Shown: in pieces, positions 16,312-24,392 of the stretch
Layout: every line of letters begins with the position of its first letter
Position numbering within the stretch: position 1 is the first letter of the stretch
DNA from: Isoptericola halotolerans
GTDB lineage: Bacteria > Actinomycetota > Actinomycetes > Actinomycetales > Cellulomonadaceae
Assembly (NCBI RefSeq): GCF_003003075.1
Contig: NZ_PVTX01000001.1
Coordinates: forward strand, 1 to 64,000
Length of the DNA: 64,000 nt
Reading direction: 5' to 3'
Program-made: the position numbers and the translations under genes
Notes under the pieces: model-generated
The model's input: the letters and a program-made list of their open reading frames with translations, nothing else
What the model was told of the DNA's origin: nothing
Databases searched by the model: none

Positions 16312-17625
16312 ATGAACCTCGGACCCCGGCCACGTGCCCTGGCCGTCGCGACGACGCTCGCGGGAGCCGTCGCGACGACCCTGGGCCTCGTGGCGCCGAC
16401 CGCCGCGGCGCCGTCTCCCGCCGCCGAGCGAGCACCCGCGGACCATGTGGTCCTGCTGGCCTTCGACGGCTTCGACGCCGACTACCTCGAGCTCGTCGAC
16501 GAGCTGCCCACCCCGCACCTGGACCGACTCGTGCGCCGCGGCAGCCTGACGACCAGCAGCGGCGTCATGACCACCATCACCAACCCGTCGTGGTCGTCTG
16601 TGGCCACCGGCGCCTGGCCGGAGCGGCACCTCAACACGGCCTACTGGTTCGACCCGGAGACGAACACCGCGCGTGGCCAGCAGCGCGACCTCGCCGTGCC
16701 GACCATCGCGCAGACGATCCGTGACCAGGGCGGCACCGTCTTCTCTTCGCAGTGGTACATCCTGCAGAACTACGGCACCGCGTACGGCGACCCGGACGGT
16801 CTCTACACGCAGCCCGGCGGCGACTGCTCGCGCCGGGTCGACGACGCCGTCGACGTCCTTCGGGGCGAGCCGGTGAACAGTGGCGGCCAGATGGTGACGG
16901 CGAGCGGGACACCGGAGCTCCTCGCCGTGTACTGCGACACCCTGGATGCACTCGGCCACGCCGGCGGTGCGGAGAACCCGGCGATCCCCGAGGCCCTGAT
17001 GATGCTCGACGAGCAGGTCGGGCGCGTCGTGGACGCCACCAAGGAGGCCGGGATCTACGGTCGCACGACGTTCATCATGACGGGCGACCACGGCATGACC
17101 ACGTTCGACCAAGGGTTCGGCGACGAGGCTCTCGCCGCGATCGCCGACACGGGCTACGACGCCCAGATCCTGTCGCCGGGCAGCTCGCCGGCTGCCGGCA
17201 CGGACGTCGCGATCGTCGTCGGTGGCGTCGCGAGCCTGCACCTGGTGGGTGATGCCACCGGTGATGCCGGTGCGGTCGAGGCGATCCGCGCCGCGCTGGA
17301 GGAGCTCCCGCAGGTCCGCGCCGTCTACGACGAGACCGACCAGGCAGAGCTGCGGATGAGCCCGAACTACGGTGAGCTCGTCGTCGAGCCGCAGCCCGGC
17401 TGGTCGTTCGGGGCGACGCCGTCCCAGCCGGTCGGGCGCCACGGTGCGTCGACGGAGCTTGACGTCGCCTTTGCGCTCGCGGGCGCCGGCGTGCTGCCGA
17501 ACCGGCCGCCCTCGGACGCCCGGCACGTCGACGTCGCCCCGACGATCGCCGCGCTGCTCGGCATCGACCCGCCGTCGGGTGCGCAGGGACGGGTGTTGAC
17601 CGAGTCCGTGCGCGTCCCGGAATAG
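16312..17625 (+). CDS. secreted type I phosphodiesterase/alkaline phosphatase-like protein
   Basis: 437 residues with a GAGGAG site 8 bases upstream. A signal peptide (Arg-rich start, Ala/Thr core, cleavage near TAAAPS, about residue 36) is followed by a nucleotide pyrophosphatase/phosphodiesterase fold. It begins HVVLLAFDGFDADYL (first metal-binding Asp), then TTITNPSWSSVATG (the Thr/Ser region that acts as nucleophile), and MTGDHGMTTF (the metal-binding D-H-G-M). A close paralogue without a signal peptide lies at 23053-24288. Export here, plus the divergent glycan operon and regulator, suggests it removes phosphodiester groups from an extracellular polymer before uptake. That is inference. 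Confidence 0.85.
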   Translation: MNLGPRPRALAVATTLAGAVATTLGLVAPTAAAPSPAAERAPADHVVLLAFDGFDADYLELVDELPTPHLDRLVRRGSLTTSSGVMTTITNPSWSSVATGAWPERHLNTAYWFDPETNTARGQQRDLAVPTIAQTIRDQGGTVFSSQWYILQNYGTAYGDPDGLYTQPGGDCSRRVDDAVDVLRGEPVNSGGQMVTASGTPELLAVYCDTLDALGHAGGAENPAIPEALMMLDEQVGRVVDATKEAGIYGRTTFIMTGDHGMTTFDQGFGDEALAAIADTGYDAQILSPGSSPAAGTDVAIVVGGVASLHLVGDATGDAGAVEAIRAALEELPQVRAVYDETDQAELRMSPNYGELVVEPQPGWSFGATPSQPVGRHGASTELDVAFALAGAGVLPNRPPSDARHVDVAPTIAALLGIDPPSGAQGRVLTESVRVPE

Positions 17626-17692: not shown

Positions 17693-18706
17693 CCGGGCCT
17701 CGGCGACAGCGTCGGCGCGCTTGGCGGCCTTCTTGTCGCTGGCGCTGGTGTCGCGGGGCGGGAGCTGGATGGTCTCCTCGGCGGCGATGCCGCCCTGCAG
17801 CTCGCGGCTGCGCTCCATCTCGGCGTCGAGCTCCGCGCCGAAGAGCAGGGCCAGGTTGGTGATCCACAGCCAGAGCAGGAACACGATGACGCTACCGAGG
17901 GTGCCGTACGTCGACCCGTAGCTGCCGAAGTTGGCGACGTAGAACCCGAACGCGGCGGAGGCCAGCGCCCAGATGACGATCGCGACGGCCGCACCGACGC
18001 TGACCCACCGGAACTTCGGCTGCTTGACGTTCGGCGTCGAGTGGTAGAGCAGCGCGATCACGATGATGACGAGCAGCAGCGCGACGGGCCACTTGGCGAT
18101 GTTCCAGATCGTCATTGCGACGTCGCTGAGCCCGACGGCGCTGCCGACGGCGGAGGCGACCGGCCCGGACAGCACCAGGCTGGCGATGACCAGGATCACC
18201 AGGACGAGGACGACGGCGGTGATCACCAGCATGACGGGGCGCAGCTTCCAGAACGGCCGGCCCTCCTCGACCTCGTACACGCGGTTCATCGCGCGGCTGA
18301 AGGCGGTGACGTACCCGGAGGCGGACCACAGGGCCAGCGCGACACCGAGGATCAGGGCGAGGCCCGCACCGGTGGAGTTCGCGGCGTTCTCGACGAGCGG
18401 CTGGACGATCGACAGCGTCTCCTCGGGCAGGAAGTCGGAGACGGTGTTCATGACCGAGCTCACTGCCGCCTCGGCGTCAGCGACCAGCCCGAGCACGGAG
18501 ATGAGGGCCAGGAGAGCCGGCGCGGACGCCAGCACCGCGTAGTAGGTGAGGGCGGCGGCCAGGTCGGTGCACTGGTCGTCGCTGAACTCGCGGAACGCGC
18601 CCTTGAGGGCGAGCTTCCAGTGCGGGCCCTTCATGTCGGGCGGGGAGTCGGGCTTGCTGGAGTCGCGGTGCGTCCGTTCCGTGCGCGACTCGTCGGTGTC
18701 AGCCAT
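17669..18706 (-). CDS. YihY/virulence factor BrkB family membrane protein
   Basis: 345 residues starting at 18706, with GGAGGG just upstream. The hydrophilic N-terminus (about 35 residues) is followed by the BrkB signature LTYYAVLASAPALLALISVLGL and further membrane segments, six in total. The C-terminus contains FGAELDAEMERSRELQGG, typical of the family, and a basic tail. Family members are inner-membrane proteins of uncertain function, once mis-annotated as ribonuclease BN. The gene is convergent with the secreted phosphodiesterase and shares its terminator. Confidence 0.9.
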   Translation of the reverse strand: MADTDESRTERTHRDSSKPDSPPDMKGPHWKLALKGAFREFSDDQCTDLAAALTYYAVLASAPALLALISVLGLVADAEAAVSSVMNTVSDFLPEETLSIVQPLVENAANSTGAGLALILGVALALWSASGYVTAFSRAMNRVYEVEEGRPFWKLRPVMLVITAVVLVLVILVIASLVLSGPVASAVGSAVGLSDVAMTIWNIAKWPVALLLVIIVIALLYHSTPNVKQPKFRWVSVGAAVAIVIWALASAAFGFYVANFGSYGSTYGTLGSVIVFLLWLWITNLALLFGAELDAEMERSRELQGGIAAEETIQLPPRDTSASDKKAAKRADAVAEARTLRRQPD

Positions 18707-18858
18707 CGGCCCTCCAGGTGTCGTCGGTCCTGCCACCAGGCTCTGCGGCGACGCGGATGCCCGCAACGCGAGGCCGCGGCCGGGTCGGGCCCACGGCGCG
18801 CGACGAGACGGCGTCGGTGCCTACGGTGGAGACGAACCTCGACACGACGGAGGCCTCG

Positions 18859-19098
18859 ATGACGCACGACGCCGACGACCGGGCGCACCGCCCGGACCCC
18901 GAGCCGGGACGAGACAGCGAGACCGATGTCCAGCCGGGCGACACCCCGCCGGCCGCAGGCCAGGTGAGCGCTCCGCAGGGCCACGACGAGCACGGCCCGC
19001 GCCGCGCCACGCCGTGGGTGTGGCTCGTGGCGATCGGGGTGGTGGTCGTGCTCGCGGCGGCCTACTTCGTGGGGTACGGCATCGGTCTCTTCGACTGA
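18859..19098 (+). CDS. small single-pass membrane protein
   Basis: 79 residues from the ATG at 18859, with GGAGG 5 bases upstream. The first 50 residues are very hydrophilic (Asp/His/Pro/Gly-rich). One C-terminal helix (WVWLVAIGVVVVLAAAYFVGY) anchors it. No family was recognised. It is divergent from the BrkB gene. Confidence 0.6.
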   Translation: MTHDADDRAHRPDPEPGRDSETDVQPGDTPPAAGQVSAPQGHDEHGPRRATPWVWLVAIGVVVVLAAAYFVGYGIGLFD

Positions 19099-19115
19099 TC
19101 CGTGACGCTGAAAAG

Positions 19116-19136
19116 GTAGTCACTACTATTGACTAC
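19116..19136 (+). promoter_or_regulatory. hipBA operator 1
   Basis: GTAGTCA and TGACTAC form a perfect 7-bp inverted repeat with a 7-base spacer, extended by flanking A/T runs. It overlaps the promoter region 57 bases upstream of hipB. Confidence 0.7.
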
Positions 19137-19154
19137 TTTTTCGACGTCATCGAT

Positions 19155-19178
19155 GATGACTACTCAAGCGTAGTCATC
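19155..19178 (+). promoter_or_regulatory. hipBA operator 2
   Basis: GATGACTAC and GTAGTCATC form a perfect 9-bp inverted repeat with a 6-base spacer, ending 14 bases before hipB. It shares the TGACTAC half-site with operator 1; the centres are about 40 bp, or four helical turns, apart. HipB-type proteins bind such repeats to repress their own operon. Confidence 0.72.
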
Positions 19179-19192
19179 GGAGGCGGATACTC

Positions 19193-19432
19193 ATGTCGTA
19201 CACAGGCCGGGTCACCAGCCCCGAGTCCTTGGGTCGGATCCTCCAGCAGGCAAGGCTGCTCAACGGCTGGAGTCAGCGGGAGCTCGCGGCGCGCATCGGC
19301 ACCACGCAGCGCTACATCTGGGAGATCGAGAGCGGGAAGCCCTCGATCTACACCGAACGGCTCTTCGCAGTCCTGCGGGAGACGGGGACCGAGCTCTCGG
19401 CGACGATCACCGAGCAGAGCACCGATGGTTGA
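19193..19432 (+). CDS. hipB: HipB-like antitoxin, XRE HTH
   Basis: 79 residues with GGAGG upstream. A Cro/C1-type helix-turn-helix spans about residues 12-66 (LGRILQQARLLNGWSQRELAARIG, then RYIWEIESGKPSI). The last residues (TITEQSTDG) form the usual short tail. It would repress the operon through the two operators upstream and neutralise HipA. Its 3' end overlaps the hipA start by 8 bases, so translation is coupled. Confidence 0.88.
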   Translation: MSYTGRVTSPESLGRILQQARLLNGWSQRELAARIGTTQRYIWEIESGKPSIYTERLFAVLRETGTELSATITEQSTDG

Positions 19433-20664
19433 GCTGGTGGTCGAGCTTTACGGAGTCACGATCGGGAGGCTGACGGGCGACGGGAGGACCTTCGACTTCG
19501 ACGCCGACGCCGACGCGATCGAGGAGTTCGGCCTCGACAGCCTGGTGATGTCGGTGGCGGTCCCGCTCGCGGTGGTGCCCGCGCGGGCACGCCGAGGGCG
19601 CCGGCAGAACTTCTTCCGTGAGCTGCTGCCCGAGGGTCGGATGCTGACACGTCTCGCGCAGCAGGCTGGGACCTCGGAGCACGACGTGGTCGCGCTGCTG
19701 CGGGCGTACGGACGCGACGTCGCTGGTGCTCTGCAGATCTGGGATCCCGAGATGCCCGGAGAGCCCAGGACGCCGGCGGTGGAACCGCTGACTCCTCGCG
19801 GGGTCGCCGACCTTCTGAGCGAGGTGGCCTCGTTCCCCCTGGCGAACAAACCGCGAGGCGGCAAGACGTCGTTGGCTGGAGTCCAGGACAAGGTGGTCCT
19901 GGTCCGGACCTCCACAGGATGGGCGCGCGCTGGACGGATACCCGTCGACCCACATCCTCAAGCCCGCTTCGCGGGACCACCCCACGATCATCTACGACGA
20001 GGAGTACGGCGCGAGGATCGCTCGTGCCCTCGGCCTGGCAGACGTCGACACCCGCATCACGGAGTTCGACGGCGTGCCCGCCCTCGTCGTCGAACGTTAT
20101 GACCGCGAGGACGGCGCGGGCGACAGCCCGCCGCAGCGGATCCACCAGGAGGACTTCAACCAGGTGCTCGGCACACAGGGGGACCAGAAGTATCAGCGGT
20201 ACGGCGGCAAGGCCTCGTTCCTTCGGGTAGCCCGGGAGCTCACCACCCTGGGAGATCGACGGTCCGTCCGTCGTCTGGCACGCATGACGGTGCTCTCGGC
20301 GGCGATCGGCAACCTCGACCTGCATGCCAAGAACCTGGCGCTTCTCCATCCCCGTGACGGGTCCGTCCAGCTCGCACCGGCCTACGACGTCGTGCCACAA
20401 GCGCACCTGCCGAACGACGGCGAGCTCGCTCTCGCCGTGGATCGCGTCTACCGGCACGCAGCGATCACGCGGGCCCACCTGGTGGCAGAGATCCACTCAT
20501 GGGGTGTGCGCGACGCCGACCACGTTGTCGACGAGAGCCTGGCGGCGGTGCTCGAGACGGTCTCCGTCGAGACCCCGGACCCGCGGGCGCACCCAGGCCT
20601 GGCCGACGACATCGTGCGGTTCGCGACCAATCTTCGCGCCGGACGCGAGGCCGGCCACCACTGA
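19425..20664 (+). pseudogene. hipA: hipA-type kinase toxin gene, frameshifted
   Basis: Two frames together give one full HipA of about 412 residues. Residues 1 to about 168 (MVELVVELYGVTIG to TSTGWAR) are in the frame of the start codon; the rest (ALDGYPSTHILKPA onward) continues in the +1 frame to the stop at 20664. The break lies in a short GC tract (gggcgcgcgc, about 19921-19930). Adding one GC unit would restore the frame exactly as W-A-R-A-L-D-G-Y. All kinase motifs are present in the second part: HLAKN-like DLHAKN with the catalytic Asp, and LAPAYDVV with the metal-binding Asp. The Ser-containing SLAGVQDK loop is in the first part. HipA phosphorylates a glutamyl-tRNA synthetase in E. 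coli. This copy is inactive unless the shift is a sequencing error, a phase-variable state or a programmed shift. Confidence 0.82.
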
Positions 20665-20697
20665 TCGTGGTGGTGGCTGCGGCTTCCCTCTTCAAGG

Positions 20698-20703
20698 TAT
20701 AGC
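20698..20703 (+). promoter_or_regulatory. possible -10 element of helR
   Basis: TATAGC lies immediately upstream of the inverted repeat at 20709-20731, which would place that repeat at the transcription start. Confidence 0.35.
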
Positions 20704-20708
20704 GCAGA

Positions 20709-20731
20709 GGGGGTCTTGCGGCAAGGCCCCC
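20709..20731 (+). promoter_or_regulatory. rifamycin-associated element (RAE)-like inverted repeat
   Basis: Left arm GGGGTCTTGC (20710-20719) and right arm GCAAGGCCCC (20721-20730) pair with a single central G and one mismatch; one more G/C pair extends it to 23 bp. In shape and core (CTTGC-G-GCAAG) it resembles the RAE known upstream of rifamycin-inactivation genes and helR in actinomycetes. It lies 62 bases before helR. I compared with the consensus from memory. Confidence 0.7.
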
Positions 20732-20792
20732 TGGGAGGCGCAGAATCTCAGGTCTCCGCCCCGGCACCCCCGGGGCTTCGCGACCGGAGCCG

Positions 20793-23066
20793 ATGCCCGT
20801 GACCTCCCGTTCCCCGAGCGCCTTCGACCTGCCCGCCTCCCGCGCCGCCAAGGCCGACGCCACCCTGATCGCCCCCGACGAGCGGCACTTCGCGGCCATC
20901 GCCGCCAGCCTCGCGGCGTCGACGGCGGACCTCACCGAGCGGCTCGACGCCGCGCGCCGCACGCCCGCCGGTTCCGGCCAGGCGGCGATGGACCGCGACC
21001 AGGAGGTCCACCGCCTCACTGCCCGCCTGCGCACGCTCCAACGGTTCGGCCTCGACCTGTGCCTGGGCCGCATGGTCCCGGCCGACGGCGGTGAGCCCGT
21101 CTACGTGGGGCGTCTCGGCCTGACGGACGGCGACGGGGCGCGCCTGCTCGTCGACTGGCGCTCGCCGGCGGCCGAGCCGTTCTTCGGCGCCACCCACGCC
21201 GACCCGATGGGGCTGGCGAGCCGCCGCCGCTACCACTGGGCGGACGGCCGGGTCAGCGACTACTGGGACGAGGTCTTCGCCACCGACGGAGCCGTCGGCG
21301 ACGGCGCGCACGGGCTCGCCCACCACCCGGCGCTCGACGACCAGTCCGCGTTCATCGCGGGCCTCGGCGCCGAGCGTTCGGACCGGATGCGCGACGTCCT
21401 GGGCACCATCCAGGCCGACCAGGACGCGATCATCCGCGCAGGCGCGCAGGGCACCCTGGTGGTCGACGGCGGTCCGGGCACCGGCAAGACGGTGGTCGCC
21501 CTGCACCGCACCGCCTACCTGCTGTACTCGGACCCGCGGCTCGGTCACCGGCGGGGCGGGGTGCTGTTCGTCGGCCCGCACCGGCCCTACCTGGCGTACG
21601 TCTCCGACGTCCTGCCCAGCCTGGGGGAGGAGGGCGTGCAGACGTGCGTCCTGGTCGACCTGGTGCCCGAGGGTGCGGCGGCCGTCCCCGAGCCCGACCC
21701 GCTGGTGGCACGGCTGAAGGCGGACGCACGCATGGTGGCCGCGCTCGAACCGGCGGTGCAGCTCTACGAGGACCCTCCGACGGAGGGGCTGCTGGTGGAG
21801 ACGCCCTCGGCCGACGTCTGGATCAGCGCCGACGACTGGGCGGAGGCGTTCGACGCGGCCGAGCCCGGCACGCCGCACAACGAGGCGCGCGACCAGGTCT
21901 GGGAGGCGTTGCTGCGCATCGGCATCGACAAGCTGGCCGACGAGCCGGTCGACGAGCCGGTCGACGAGCGGGTCGACGAGCCGGACCTCGACGGGGCGTC
22001 CGACGACGCGGACGGCGAGTTCGACGCCTACGGGCGGACCGCCGTCGACCCCGACGACGCGTCCCGGCGGGCGCTCGCCGCGAACCGGGACCTGGCGCGG
22101 GCGTTCGGCCGGGCGTGGCCGCTGCTCGAGCCGACCGACGTCGTCGGCGACCTGTGGGAGGTGCCCGCCTACCTGCGGCGGTGCGCGCCGTGGCTGGCGC
22201 CGGACGAGGTCTCGGCGCTGCAGCGCGCGGACGCCCGCGCGTGGACGGTGGCCGACCTGCCCCTGCTGGACGCGGCCCGCCGTCGGATCGGTGACCCGCA
22301 GGCGGCGCGCCGTCGACGGCGGCAGGAGGCGGCCGTCGCCGCGGAGCGGGCGCGCCTGGCCGACGTGGTCGACGACCTGATCGCCACCGACGACTCGGAG
22401 ATGGCCGTGATGTCGATGCTGCGCGGCCAGGACCTGCGCACGGCGCTGGTGGACGACTCGGCGGTCCCGGCGGCCGAGCCGGACGCCCTCGCCGGACCGT
22501 TCGCGCACGTCGTCGTCGACGAGGCGCAGGAGCTCACCGACGCGGAGTGGCAGATGCTGCTGGCGCGCTGCCCCTCGCGCAGCCTGACGGTGGTGGGGGA
22601 CCGGGCGCAGGCCCGGCACGGCTTCACGGAGTCGTGGAAGCAGCGGCTGGAGCGCGTCGGCCTCGACGGCGTGGGCCTCGCCTCGCTGACCATCAACTAC
22701 CGCACGCCGAGCGAGGTCATGGCCGCGGCCGAGCCGGTGATCCGGGCCGCGATCCCGGACGCCAACGTCCCGACCTCCGTGCGCAGCGCCGGCCCGGTGG
22801 TCCACGGCACGACGGCGGAGCTGGAGCGCGTGCTCGACGGCTGGCTCGCCGAGCACGCCGGCACCGCGTGCGTGATCGGCGCGGCGGACCTCGCGCCGCG
22901 GGAGCGGGTGCGGGCGCTGACGCCGGAGCTGGCGAAGGGGCTCGAGTTCGACCTGGTGGTGCTGGTGGACCCGCACCGGTTCGGCGACGGGATCGAGGGG
23001 GCGGTGGACCGCTACGTCGCGATGACCCGCGCGACGCAGCGGCTCGTGGTGCTCACCGGCGGCTGA
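20793..23066 (+). CDS. helR: HelR/HelD-like RNA polymerase-recycling ATPase
   Basis: 757 residues, GGAG 4 bases before the ATG. It is a UvrD/Rep-like (SF1) NTPase split as in HelD: an N-terminal coiled arm (about 1-90), domain 1A with Walker A GGPGTGKT (226-233), a long insertion, Walker B DEAQ (576-579), and VVGDRAQARHG. The C-terminal motif region reads AKGLEFDLVVLVDP and VAMTRATQRLV. HelD-class proteins pry nucleic acid off RNA polymerase; HelR members also displace rifampicin and give tolerance. An acidic region at about 381-412 made of VDEP repeats lies where HelD has its primary-channel loop. An RAE-like repeat precedes the gene. Its last 14 bases overlap the convergent phosphodiesterase gene. 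Confidence 0.88.
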   Translation: MPVTSRSPSAFDLPASRAAKADATLIAPDERHFAAIAASLAASTADLTERLDAARRTPAGSGQAAMDRDQEVHRLTARLRTLQRFGLDLCLGRMVPADGGEPVYVGRLGLTDGDGARLLVDWRSPAAEPFFGATHADPMGLASRRRYHWADGRVSDYWDEVFATDGAVGDGAHGLAHHPALDDQSAFIAGLGAERSDRMRDVLGTIQADQDAIIRAGAQGTLVVDGGPGTGKTVVALHRTAYLLYSDPRLGHRRGGVLFVGPHRPYLAYVSDVLPSLGEEGVQTCVLVDLVPEGAAAVPEPDPLVARLKADARMVAALEPAVQLYEDPPTEGLLVETPSADVWISADDWAEAFDAAEPGTPHNEARDQVWEALLRIGIDKLADEPVDEPVDERVDEPDLDGASDDADGEFDAYGRTAVDPDDASRRALAANRDLARAFGRAWPLLEPTDVVGDLWEVPAYLRRCAPWLAPDEVSALQRADARAWTVADLPLLDAARRRIGDPQAARRRRRQEAAVAAERARLADVVDDLIATDDSEMAVMSMLRGQDLRTALVDDSAVPAAEPDALAGPFAHVVVDEAQELTDAEWQMLLARCPSRSLTVVGDRAQARHGFTESWKQRLERVGLDGVGLASLTINYRTPSEVMAAAEPVIRAAIPDANVPTSVRSAGPVVHGTTAELERVLDGWLAEHAGTACVIGAADLAPRERVRALTPELAKGLEFDLVVLVDPHRFGDGIEGAVDRYVAMTRATQRLVVLTGG
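21939..21986 (+). repeat. 12-bp tandem repeat within helR
   Basis: About four copies of a gacgagccggtc-like unit encode D-E-P-V repeats (residues about 383-398). Copy number could vary by slippage without breaking the frame. Confidence 0.7.
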
Positions 23067-24288
23067 GGTCCGGGTACCCCGCCAGCGCCTCGGTCAGCAC
23101 CCGCCCCTGCGCACCGGCCGGCGGGTCGATGCCGAGCAGCGCGGCCACGGTGGGCGCCACGTCGACGTGCCGGGGGTCCGACGGCGGCCGGCCGGGGGCG
23201 ATCCCGGCACCGGCCAGCGCGAACGCCACCTCCAGCTCGGTGCTGGCCCCGTGCCGGCCGGCCGGTCGGCGGGGCGTGGAGCCGAACGACCAACCGGGCT
23301 GCGGCTCGACCACGAGCTCGCCGTAGCGAGGGCTCATCCGCATCCGGGCCTGGTCGTCCTTGCCGTGGACGGCCCGCACCTGGGGGAGCGCCTCGAGCGC
23401 CGCGCGGATCGCCGCCACGGCTCGGGGGTCGTCGGCCGCGCGGCCGACCAGGTGCAGGCTCGCCACCCCGCCGACGACGGCGACGACGTCGGTCCGCCGC
23501 CGGGGCGCGTCGCCGGGGCGCACGATCTCCATCCGGTACCCGGCGCGCGCGACCGCGGTACGGGCCGCCCGGCCGAAGCCCCGGTCGAACGTCGTCATCC
23601 CGTGGTCGCCCAGCAGCACGAAGGCGGTGCGGGCAGCGATGCCGGCCTCCTCGGTGGCCGCGACGAGCCGCCCCACCTGTGCGTCGATGTCTCGCAGCGC
23701 GGCCGGGATGCCCGGGTGCCGGTCGCCGCCCGCGTGGCCGAGGGCGTCGAGGACGTCGCAGTAGACCGCGACGAGCTGCGGCGGCCTGCTCAGGGTGACC
23801 GGCGTGCCCCCGCTGAGCACTGGCTCGCCGCGCAGGACCGCGACCGCGTCGTCGACCCGTCGCGCGCTGTCGCCGCCCGGCCGGGTGTACAGACCGTCCC
23901 GATCGCCGAACGCGGTGCCGTGGTCCTGCAGCACGGGCCACTGCACGCACAGCACGGTGCCGCCCTGCTCGCGCACGGCCTCCGCCAGGGTGGGCACCGC
24001 GACGTCACGCTGCTGCCCACGGGCGACGCGCCCCTCCGGGTCGTACCAGAACGCCGAGTTCAGGTGGCGTTCCGGCCAGGCACCGGTGGCGATCGAGGTC
24101 CACGACGGGTTGGTGATGCTCGGCATCACCCCCGTCCCGGTGGTCAGGCTCCCGCGGCGCACGAGGGCGTCCAGGTGCGGCGTCGGCAGGCCGTCGAGCA
24201 GCGGGAGGTAGCCGGCGTCGAACCCGTCCAGGGCGAGGAGGACGACGTGGTCGGCCGGCGGTGCGGGCGTGCCGGCAGCGGATTCCAT
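23053..24288 (-). CDS. type I phosphodiesterase/alkaline phosphatase-like protein, cytoplasmic paralogue
   Basis: 411 residues from the ATG at 24288. It is very similar to the secreted protein at 16312-17625 over its whole catalytic domain: HVVLLALDGFDAGYL, SITNPSWTSIATGAWPERHL, QQRDVAVPTLAE, LGDHGMTTFDRGFG and VASLHLVGRA. But it starts directly at the domain, without a signal peptide. The GTG at 24324 would add 12 basic residues, also not a signal peptide. It probably hydrolyses phosphodiester or pyrophosphate bonds in the cytoplasm. No ribosome site at proper spacing was found, so the start is uncertain. Confidence 0.84.
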   Translation of the reverse strand: MESAAGTPAPPADHVVLLALDGFDAGYLPLLDGLPTPHLDALVRRGSLTTGTGVMPSITNPSWTSIATGAWPERHLNSAFWYDPEGRVARGQQRDVAVPTLAEAVREQGGTVLCVQWPVLQDHGTAFGDRDGLYTRPGGDSARRVDDAVAVLRGEPVLSGGTPVTLSRPPQLVAVYCDVLDALGHAGGDRHPGIPAALRDIDAQVGRLVAATEEAGIAARTAFVLLGDHGMTTFDRGFGRAARTAVARAGYRMEIVRPGDAPRRRTDVVAVVGGVASLHLVGRAADDPRAVAAIRAALEALPQVRAVHGKDDQARMRMSPRYGELVVEPQPGWSFGSTPRRPAGRHGASTELEVAFALAGAGIAPGRPPSDPRHVDVAPTVAALLGIDPPAGAQGRVLTEALAGYPDLSRR

Positions 24289-24392
24289 GCCTCCATGGTC
24301 GCGCCGGTGGCGCCGATTCGGCACGACGACGGCGGGTCGGGCACTATGTGACCGGTCGTGAAGCAGCCGCGGCCTGAGGATGAGCTCAGAAG

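What the first reader, a model, noticed from the sequence alone, without database searches (positions are those of the whole stretch)
20709..20731. RAE-like inverted repeat in front of a HelR-type RNA polymerase ATPase
Seen: arms GGGGTCTTGC and GCAAGGCCCC with one central base, 62 bp before a 757-residue HelD/HelR-like protein, just after a TATAGC -10. Known: the rifamycin-associated element is a short inverted repeat upstream of rifamycin-inactivating genes and helR in actinomycetes, and HelR displaces rifampicin from RNA polymerase. Inference: this organism has inducible rifamycin tolerance. No inactivating enzyme gene is adjacent.
Basis: partly seen in the sequence, partly recalled or inferred. 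Interest (0 to 1): 0.72.

Follow-up and report, generated by a model that had tools for sequence, protein, structure and literature searches.

The report
Two-way promoter before rifamycin-protection gene
A bacterium carries a known antibiotic-response DNA signal in front of a gene that protects RNA polymerase from rifamycins, and comparison with relatives suggests that the signal is the shared middle of two back-to-back promoters, one of which usually makes only a tiny RNA that stops at once.

Summary
In detail: 20710-20730 is a rifamycin-associated element (RAE) 62 bp before a 757-aa HelR (NF041254, 1211.9 bits, cut-off 750). It is the only cassette found in the 3.85-Mb genome, where Arr, Rox, Rph and Rgt models found nothing. 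New here is the anatomy. The palindrome is the centre of a rigid cassette of about 65 bp. Mirror-placed, each 19 bp from one of two overlapping TTGCnG -35 boxes, lie a sense -10 (CAGAAT, 20741-20746) and an antisense -10 (TACCTT, 20699-20694); their key bases are near-invariant in sites chosen by palindrome, by HelR protein or by cassette model. In 47 of 88 model-found sites an antisense hairpin begins exactly at the predicted antisense +1 (shuffles: mean 2.5, maximum 7), often followed by T's; Stenotrophomonas keeps this before arr. All 94 listed HelR genes of 200 family genomes have the cassette. So the RAE looks like the shared -35 of two mutually exclusive promoters, the antisense one self-terminating. 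The window copy lacks the terminator, there are no transcript data, and how rifamycin tips the balance is unproven.

The parts
20710..20730 (.). RAE palindrome GGGGTCTTGC-G-GCAAGGCCCC (19-bp core 20711-20729), centre 20720
20716..20721 (+). sense -35 TTGCGG, left half of the palindrome
   Evidence: conserved in all sets; overlap of the RAE with a sense -35 is reported for M. smegmatis and M. abscessus helD in PMC10719064
20741..20746 (+). sense -10 CAGAAT, 19-bp spacer; predicted start near 20753
   Evidence: A+22 67/68 and T+26 67/68; 88/90 and 89/90; YANNNT in 61/67, 24/30, 83/88; sequence inference, no RNA data
20719..20724 (-). antisense -35 TTGCCG, right half of the palindrome read on the other strand
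20694..20699 (-). antisense -10 TACCTT, mirror position, 19-bp spacer; predicted start near 20687
   Evidence: TANNNT in 66/67, 28/30 and 85/88 sites of three sets; sequence inference, no RNA data
20687..20709 (.). conserved left flank of the cassette, including TATAGC 20698-20703
20652..20679 (-). best antisense hairpin of this copy; begins 8 nt past the predicted start and lacks a T-run, so not a recognisable terminator; overlaps the end of the hipA-like ORF
20793..23066 (+). helR, RNA polymerase-protecting motor ATPase, 757 aa
   Evidence: NF041254 1211.9 bits, cut-off 750; best solved relative M. smegmatis HelD 6yxu/6yys

Best explanation
The RAE is the palindromic -35 region shared by two mirror-image, mutually exclusive sigma-A-type promoters. 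The antisense one has the better -10 (TANNNT) and is the default site for RNA polymerase; in about half of the sites its transcript would begin with a hairpin at +1, often followed by T's, so that it ends after about 30 nt and serves no gene. The sense one (C at the first -10 position, 19-bp spacer) is weak and drives helR, or elsewhere rox, rph, arr or an rgt-like gene. Competition keeps the gene low; sub-inhibitory rifamycin shifts occupancy to the sense side and HelR is made. Shown by sequence: the cassette, its near-invariant bases, its rigid symmetry, the antisense hairpin/terminator in many lineages, the link to rifamycin genes. Inferred: that both promoters fire, that they compete, and that rifamycin shifts the balance. 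Possible trigger without a regulator (inference): an antisense complex that is long-lived once it holds RNA longer than 3 nt becomes short-lived when rifamycin limits the RNA to 2-3 nt, freeing the site for drug-free polymerase.
For: Near-invariant bases outside the palindrome are A-26, T-22, A-21 (antisense T7, A11, T12) and A+22, T+26 (sense A11, T7): 67/68 each in palindrome-selected sites; invariant in the 79-row gapped alignment A1; 89, 90, 89, 88 and 89 of 90 in the second set, spacing fixed in 89/90 on each side. All 30 HelR loci chosen by protein score alone carry the cassette, as do 94 of 94 listed HelR genes in 200 family genomes (12 of these 94 sites are training rows of the model). 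Antisense stem with 5' base exactly at -33, the +1 predicted from the -10: 47/88 against 2.5 (maximum 7) in 40 shuffles; T in the next 8 nt 3.96 against 1.63 expected, 4 or more T in 30 of the 47. Stringent terminators in the first set: 28/98 antisense, 0/98 sense leader, 2/98 same segment on the other strand. Stem pairs not used for placing the arm covary beyond all 2000 permutations at 4 of 6 positions. Stenotrophomonas: TAGACT / TA(A/C)TCT in 27/27 loci read (24 distinct sequences), with different stems and five or more T in 25 of 27 (T-runs counted by eye). Precedents for promoter interference in rifampicin induction: B. subtilis helD and, as reported in a review, M. smegmatis rpoBC.
Against: No transcript data. 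In B. subtilis, bringing the two promoters so close that polymerases exclude each other abolished induction (PMC12802891); here an arrested polymerase on the antisense side should also block the sense side, so that model cannot be copied unchanged. The GGG/CCC arms are as conserved as the -35 boxes and are not needed for ordinary sigma binding, which favours a bound protein. The window copy has no antisense terminator, and 41 of 88 model-found sites lack the stem at -33. A sense hexamer YANNNT at -27..-22 fits as often as the antisense one or nearly so (64/67, 28/30, 85/88), and more often than the assigned sense -10 in two sets (61/67, 24/30, 83/88), though it does not explain A-21 and has no conserved -35. 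The reported M. smegmatis sense P1 start, about 20 bp upstream of the RAE, is not explained. The matrix and R1 favour fixed spacing.
Confidence: 0.55

Rival explanations
1. The RAE palindrome is the binding site of a dedicated rifamycin-responsive transcription factor dimer that represses or activates the sense promoter; the antisense promoter is a by-product or a fine-tuning element.
For: Default view in print: unknown factor (PMC10719064 section 9; PMC12802891 discussion passage). G-8, G-7 and C+8 are 90/90 and lie outside any -35 hexamer. [quoted passage not shown] abscessus (as reported in PMC10719064).
Against: It does not by itself explain the two mirror-placed -10 elements or the hairpin at the antisense +1. 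The cassette is also kept in 26 of 61 genomes of a Stenotrophomonas genus, which would need the factor in two phyla. A symmetric site centred on both -35 boxes should affect both promoters alike.
Confidence: 0.35
2. The conserved left block (CAACnTATAGC) is a sense promoter P1 that starts just before or in the RAE; the RAE then lies in a 5' leader.
For: TATAGC is strongly conserved; a sense YANNNT hexamer fits -27..-22 in 64/67, 28/30 and 85/88 sites. Two sense promoters are reported for M. smegmatis helD.
Against: C, not T, in 66/68 and 89/90 at the last base of TATAGC; no conserved -35 upstream; A-21 and the antisense-oriented hairpin with its T's stay unexplained.
Confidence: 0.15
3. The hairpin upstream is only an insulator against antisense transcription from the gene, unrelated to an antisense promoter.
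For: Terminator polarity is antisense.
Against: Its 5' base sits at the exact predicted antisense +1 in 47/88 sites, with many stem sequences, and in Stenotrophomonas at or one base from it.
Confidence: 0.1

Closest known systems
Rifamycin-associated element upstream of rgt, rox, helR and other genes (Spanogiannopoulos 2014, Surette 2022, Hurst-Hess 2022; known here through passages of PMC10719064 and PMC8655204, originals not read)
   Same: 19-bp palindrome, same genes downstream, overlap with the -35 of a sense promoter
   Different: The passages I read treat it as a palindrome in the 5' UTR for an unknown factor; they do not mention a mirror antisense promoter or an antisense terminator
B. 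subtilis helD/pps dual-promoter rifampicin alarm (PMC12802891)
   Same: A sense and an antisense promoter in front of a HelD gene, the antisense one dominant (measured there, inferred from the -10 here)
   Different: B. subtilis promoters are convergent, 39 bp from start to start, and induction was lost when they were brought to overlap; here they would be divergent, overlap at the -35, and the antisense RNA often ends at once
M. smegmatis rpoBC tandem promoters (reported in PMC10719064)
   Same: One promoter interferes with another and sub-MIC rifampicin relieves it
   Different: Two promoters of one operon, one upstream of the other; no palindrome mentioned
Class II HelD of M. smegmatis (PDB 6yxu, 6yys)
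   Same: Homologous motor ATPase over residues 31-372 and 436-754 of the window protein
   Different: The window protein scores above the HelR model and far below the HelD_MYCSM cut-off (1211.9 vs 750; 389.2 vs 1051); acidic insertion near residues 373-435

Membership tests
RAE | 19-bp inverted repeat | tested here: met
   GGGTCTTGCGGCAAGGCCC at 20711-20729; one mismatch between the arms, at the position that is also the most variable elsewhere
RAE | lies upstream of a rifamycin-resistance gene | tested here: met
   helR starts 62 bp downstream
RAE | agrees with RAE sites of other organisms | tested here: met
   matrix from 68 foreign sites: 67.0 against at most -37.0 elsewhere; R1 E 1.8e-17 (R1 contains the window as 1 of 79 rows)
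RAE | overlaps the -35 of a downstream sense promoter | tested here: met
   by sequence only: TTGCGG-19-CAGAAT; no start site measured
RAE | induction by sub-inhibitory rifamycin | not testable with these tools
   no expression data
HelR | score over the curated HelR model | tested here: met
   1211.9 bits, cut-off 750
HelR | HelD motifs: DWR in the N-terminal domain, Walker A | tested here: met
   DWRSP and GGPGTGKT in the translation; DWR as an absolutely conserved HelD motif from PMC8655204; the Walker A label is recalled
HelR | primary-channel loop that displaces rifampicin | tested here: inconclusive
   residues 436-754 align with M. smegmatis HelD 389-709; the loop residues were not mapped and no structure was predicted
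HelR | releases rifamycin from RNA polymerase | not testable with these tools
   biochemistry needed
B. subtilis-type convergent dual-promoter alarm | convergent promoters that do not exclude each other sterically | tested here: not met
   predicted starts at -33 (antisense) and +33 (sense), divergent, -35 boxes overlapping; feature from PMC12802891 section 48

The most novel reading that the evidence does not exclude
RAEs across Actinomycetes and in Stenotrophomonas are not simple operators but divergent promoter pairs built on one palindrome, with a decoy promoter that makes a self-terminating RNA of about 30 nt. RNA polymerase itself is the rifamycin sensor and no dedicated regulator exists.
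Probability: 0.25. Interest if true: 0.88.

Novelty: new variant of a known kind. Interest (0 to 1): 0.68.

Why it matters
How the RAE works is said to remain to be elucidated (PMC12802891, January 2026, passage), although it sits before at least five kinds of rifamycin-resistance genes. The anatomy found here makes sharp predictions (an antisense start at -33, a hairpin RNA of about 30 nt, competition for one -35) that existing 5'-end data or one in-vitro transcription assay can test, and it could bring the actinobacterial and Bacillus rifampicin alarms under one principle, promoter interference. The locus itself is an ordinary RAE-helR unit; the label 'new variant' refers to the promoter anatomy.

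Tried and rejected
Palindrome as the whole element: rejected; 8 of 81 palindrome sites lack the flanks and were not found before rifamycin genes. The two other exact cores in the own genome (L002, L003) lack the arms, and R1 gives no further convincing match (next E 1.31, where 150 of 3388 first-look candidates were scored). TATAGC as sense -10: disfavoured (above). Known RNA family: no Rfam match at gathering score for six loci; in the window region one hit of E 0.99, far below its gathering score. Simple consensus scan: no promoter or terminator called in 20400-21100; it allows only 16-18-nt spacers. Leader peptide idea: short frames beginning VRVLLSxYG after cassettes of some HelR, Rox and Rph loci look like the start of rgt, a fossil of cassette exchange, and are present in a minority of loci. 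Direct transfer of the B. subtilis model: rejected because of steric overlap.

Rows dropped and limits: of 70 classified ORFs, L093-5330 and L123-2977 (second reading of a site already counted) were dropped, leaving 68 sites; L107+31 (near the contig end) was dropped from the terminator and hexamer counts, leaving 67. A1 holds 79 of the 98 cassettes listed. Set B: loci L170-L259 (30 best matches, 54 places picked by me from its capped listing for diversity, 6 same-genus HelR loci); L224 gave no site; window added = 90; searches used 88. Twenty-seven Stenotrophomonas loci were read: the 26 and L262; the script's filter asked for the four -10 bases, and all 27 passed. One search used the 94 HelR places listed (92 genomes over the cut-off plus G013, whose best piece is under it). 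Searches ran with stricter filters that can lose weak matches. Family names: all 26 HelR-cluster ORFs match NF041254 at E<=1e-20, but four (L070, L083, L093-, L103) fit the HelD_MYCSM/motor_HelR_2 models better; all 25 Rox and 7 Rph ORFs match their models; of 5 Arr only one and of 5 Rgt-like only two were scanned one by one, the two Rgt-like ones under the cut-off (532.3 and 507.6 of 800).

Full report
1. Observation. The inverted repeat is at 20710-20730 as described, 62 bp before the ATG at 20793. A matrix built from 68 RAE sites of other organisms scores it 67.0; the next best value in the 64-kb window, -37.0, is the same palindrome on the other strand, and then -46.5. The downstream 757-aa protein scores 1211.9 bits against NCBIfam motor_HelR (cut-off 750) and stays below the cut-offs of motor_HelR_2 and of the two HelD models. 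The best solved relative is M. smegmatis HelD, 6yxu/6yys. The genome (3.85 Mb, 22 contigs) has a second HelD-type gene at 451 bits on another contig, with no cassette in its fetched locus (L017).

2. The RAE regulon of this genome. A sequence model of the cassette (R1; 79 rows, the window among them) finds it once, at helR, E 1.8e-17; the only other match away from this site has E 1.31 (150 of 3388 first-look candidates scored). Arr (E<=1e-4) and Rox, Rph, Rgt (E<=1e-10) were not found. So helR is the only RAE gene, and the only one of these rifamycin determinants, that was seen.

3. What the palindrome marks elsewhere. Downstream ORFs cluster as HelR/HelD 26, Rox 25, Rph 7, Arr 5, Rgt-like 5 and an MFS exporter 2. 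All 26 of the first cluster match the HelR model at E<=1e-20, four of them fitting the mycobacterial HelD/HelR_2 models better; all 25 Rox and 7 Rph match their models; one Arr (198.1 bits, cut-off 130), two Rgt-like (532.3 and 507.6 bits, under the cut-off of 800) and one MFS were scanned singly. Two of these 70 ORFs are second readings of a site, so 68 sites. Of the 13 remaining sites, 5 have the cassette flanks with the gene cut off by the locus end, and 8 have the palindrome only; none of these 8 records is titled as an actinomycete (titles).

4. The cassette. Aligned on the palindrome centre, the 68 sites are conserved from about -40 to +28, far beyond 19 bp: CCACTyTCAACnTATAGCGCACCG-[RAE]-GGTCGTGCCGCAGAATCG. 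The near-invariant bases outside the palindrome include A-26, T-22, A-21, A+22 and T+26 (67/68 each) and C-17 (66/68). The first five are invariant in the 79-row gapped alignment and hold in 89, 90, 89, 88 and 89 of 90 sites of a second set, mostly found with R1 in other genomes of the class. They are the key positions of two -10 hexamers at mirror places, -26..-21 on the antisense strand and +21..+26 on the sense strand, each 19 bp from a TTGCnG -35 lying in the palindrome. TANNNT on the antisense strand at that place fits 66/67, 28/30 and 85/88 sites of three sets; the sense hexamer fits YANNNT in 61/67, 24/30 and 83/88, nearly always with C first, so it is the weaker one. A third hexamer, YANNNT on the sense strand at -27..-22, fits 64/67, 28/30 and 85/88 but explains neither A-21 nor any conserved -35.

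5. The antisense terminator. From the antisense -10, +1 should fall at -33. In the first set a stringent rule found terminators in 28 of 98 sites on the antisense strand, 0 of 98 in the sense leader and 2 of 98 in the same segment read the other way. With -33 noted from that set, 47 of 88 sites of the second set have a stem beginning exactly there (40 shuffles: mean 2.5, maximum 7), with 3.96 T in the next 8 nt against 1.63 expected. Neighbouring offsets also score (45 at -34, 41 at -31), as expected of longer or shorter readings of one stem. R1 reaches only to -45, so the 3' arm and the T's were not selected for. Stem sequences differ between lineages; with the arm placed by other pairs (120 and 112 of 185 distinct sites), 4 of 6 test pairs exceed all 2000 permutations (relatedness not removed). 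In the genus of a Stenotrophomonas genome, 26 of 61 genomes carry the cassette; the 27 loci read show TAGACT and TA(A/C)TCT at the mirror places and a different stem, with five or more T in 25 of 27 by eye, mostly before a 144-146-aa ORF, which is in the Arr cluster for L116. The window copy has no stem at -33 and no T-run; same-genus relatives L255 and L257 have the stem.

6. Link to HelR. In 200 genomes of the family, 92 have HelR over the cut-off and 112 have the cassette. All 94 HelR places listed, one of them a split gene below the cut-off, have it upstream on the same strand, 14-678 bp (median 74.5) from the start of the profile match; 12 of these 94 sites are training rows of R1. Of the other 27 cassettes, 18 precede Rox, 4 Rgt-like, 1 Rph, 2 HelR-like sequence that the cut-off missed (L303; L323, cut by the contig end), and 2 something else. 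In print, some HelR-group genes of other lineages have no identifiable RAE (PMC8655204 passage).

7. Mechanism. The anatomy implies two divergent promoters that cannot be occupied together, the antisense one stronger by its -10 and, in about half of the sites, ending at once. I take the antisense promoter as the resting state and the sense promoter as released by rifamycin. Promoter interference relieved by rifampicin is documented for B. subtilis helD (PMC12802891; abstract, section 48 and discussion passages read) and reported for M. smegmatis rpoBC (PMC10719064, section 9 read). The B. subtilis system is convergent and fails when the promoters overlap, so the trigger here must differ: either drug-arrested antisense complexes are short-lived, or a factor bound to the GGG/CCC arms decides. 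No call separates these two.

8. Novelty. RAE and helR are known, as is the overlap of the RAE with a sense -35. I found no mention of an antisense promoter or terminator at the RAE in the listings of searches or in the passages read of PMC12802891, PMC10719064, PMC8655204 and PMC7283461. Two primary papers were not held and Surette 2022 was not looked up, so this is no proof of absence from print.

Noticed in passing
window 18546-20102 and 20074-20664, + strand: N-terminal (Couple_hipA) and C-terminal (HipA_C) parts of a HipA-like protein lie in two overlapping ORFs in different frames: an apparent frameshift just upstream of the RAE.
   Followed up: partly
window 16312-17625 (+) and 23053-24324 (-): Two similar alkaline-phosphatase-superfamily proteins flank the YihY/hipA/helR segment; both match PafA and phosphonoacetate hydrolase models weakly.
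   Followed up: no
L091, L110, L050, L122, L173, L183, L198, about +67 to +71 from the RAE centre: Short rgt-like reading frames (such as VRVLLSKYGSRRDVEP) follow the cassette in loci whose main ORF is not rgt or was not identified, as if the cassette had been exchanged together with the start of rgt.
   Followed up: partly
L261, L262, L268-L292: A full RAE cassette with mirror -10 elements and, in most, a strong antisense terminator is kept in 26 of 61 genomes of a Stenotrophomonas genus, before an arr-type gene.
   Followed up: partly
L067 and L123: RAE cassette before (L067) or divergent from (L123) an MFS exporter related to EmrB/OtrB, a possible further member of the RAE regulon.
   Followed up: no
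L313: A degenerate cassette lies before an ADP-ribosylglycohydrolase-like ORF, under that model's cut-off.
   Followed up: no
window 21909-22097 (HelR residues about 373-435): Acidic, partly repetitive stretch (DEPVDEPVDERVDEP...) not aligned to M. smegmatis HelD; several family members split the HelR profile near position 365.
   Followed up: no
L002 (C5:103994) and L003 (C8:20122): Two other exact CTTGCNGCAAG cores without the G/C arms; in L003 the core lies between a TTGAAA and a TACACT.
   Followed up: no
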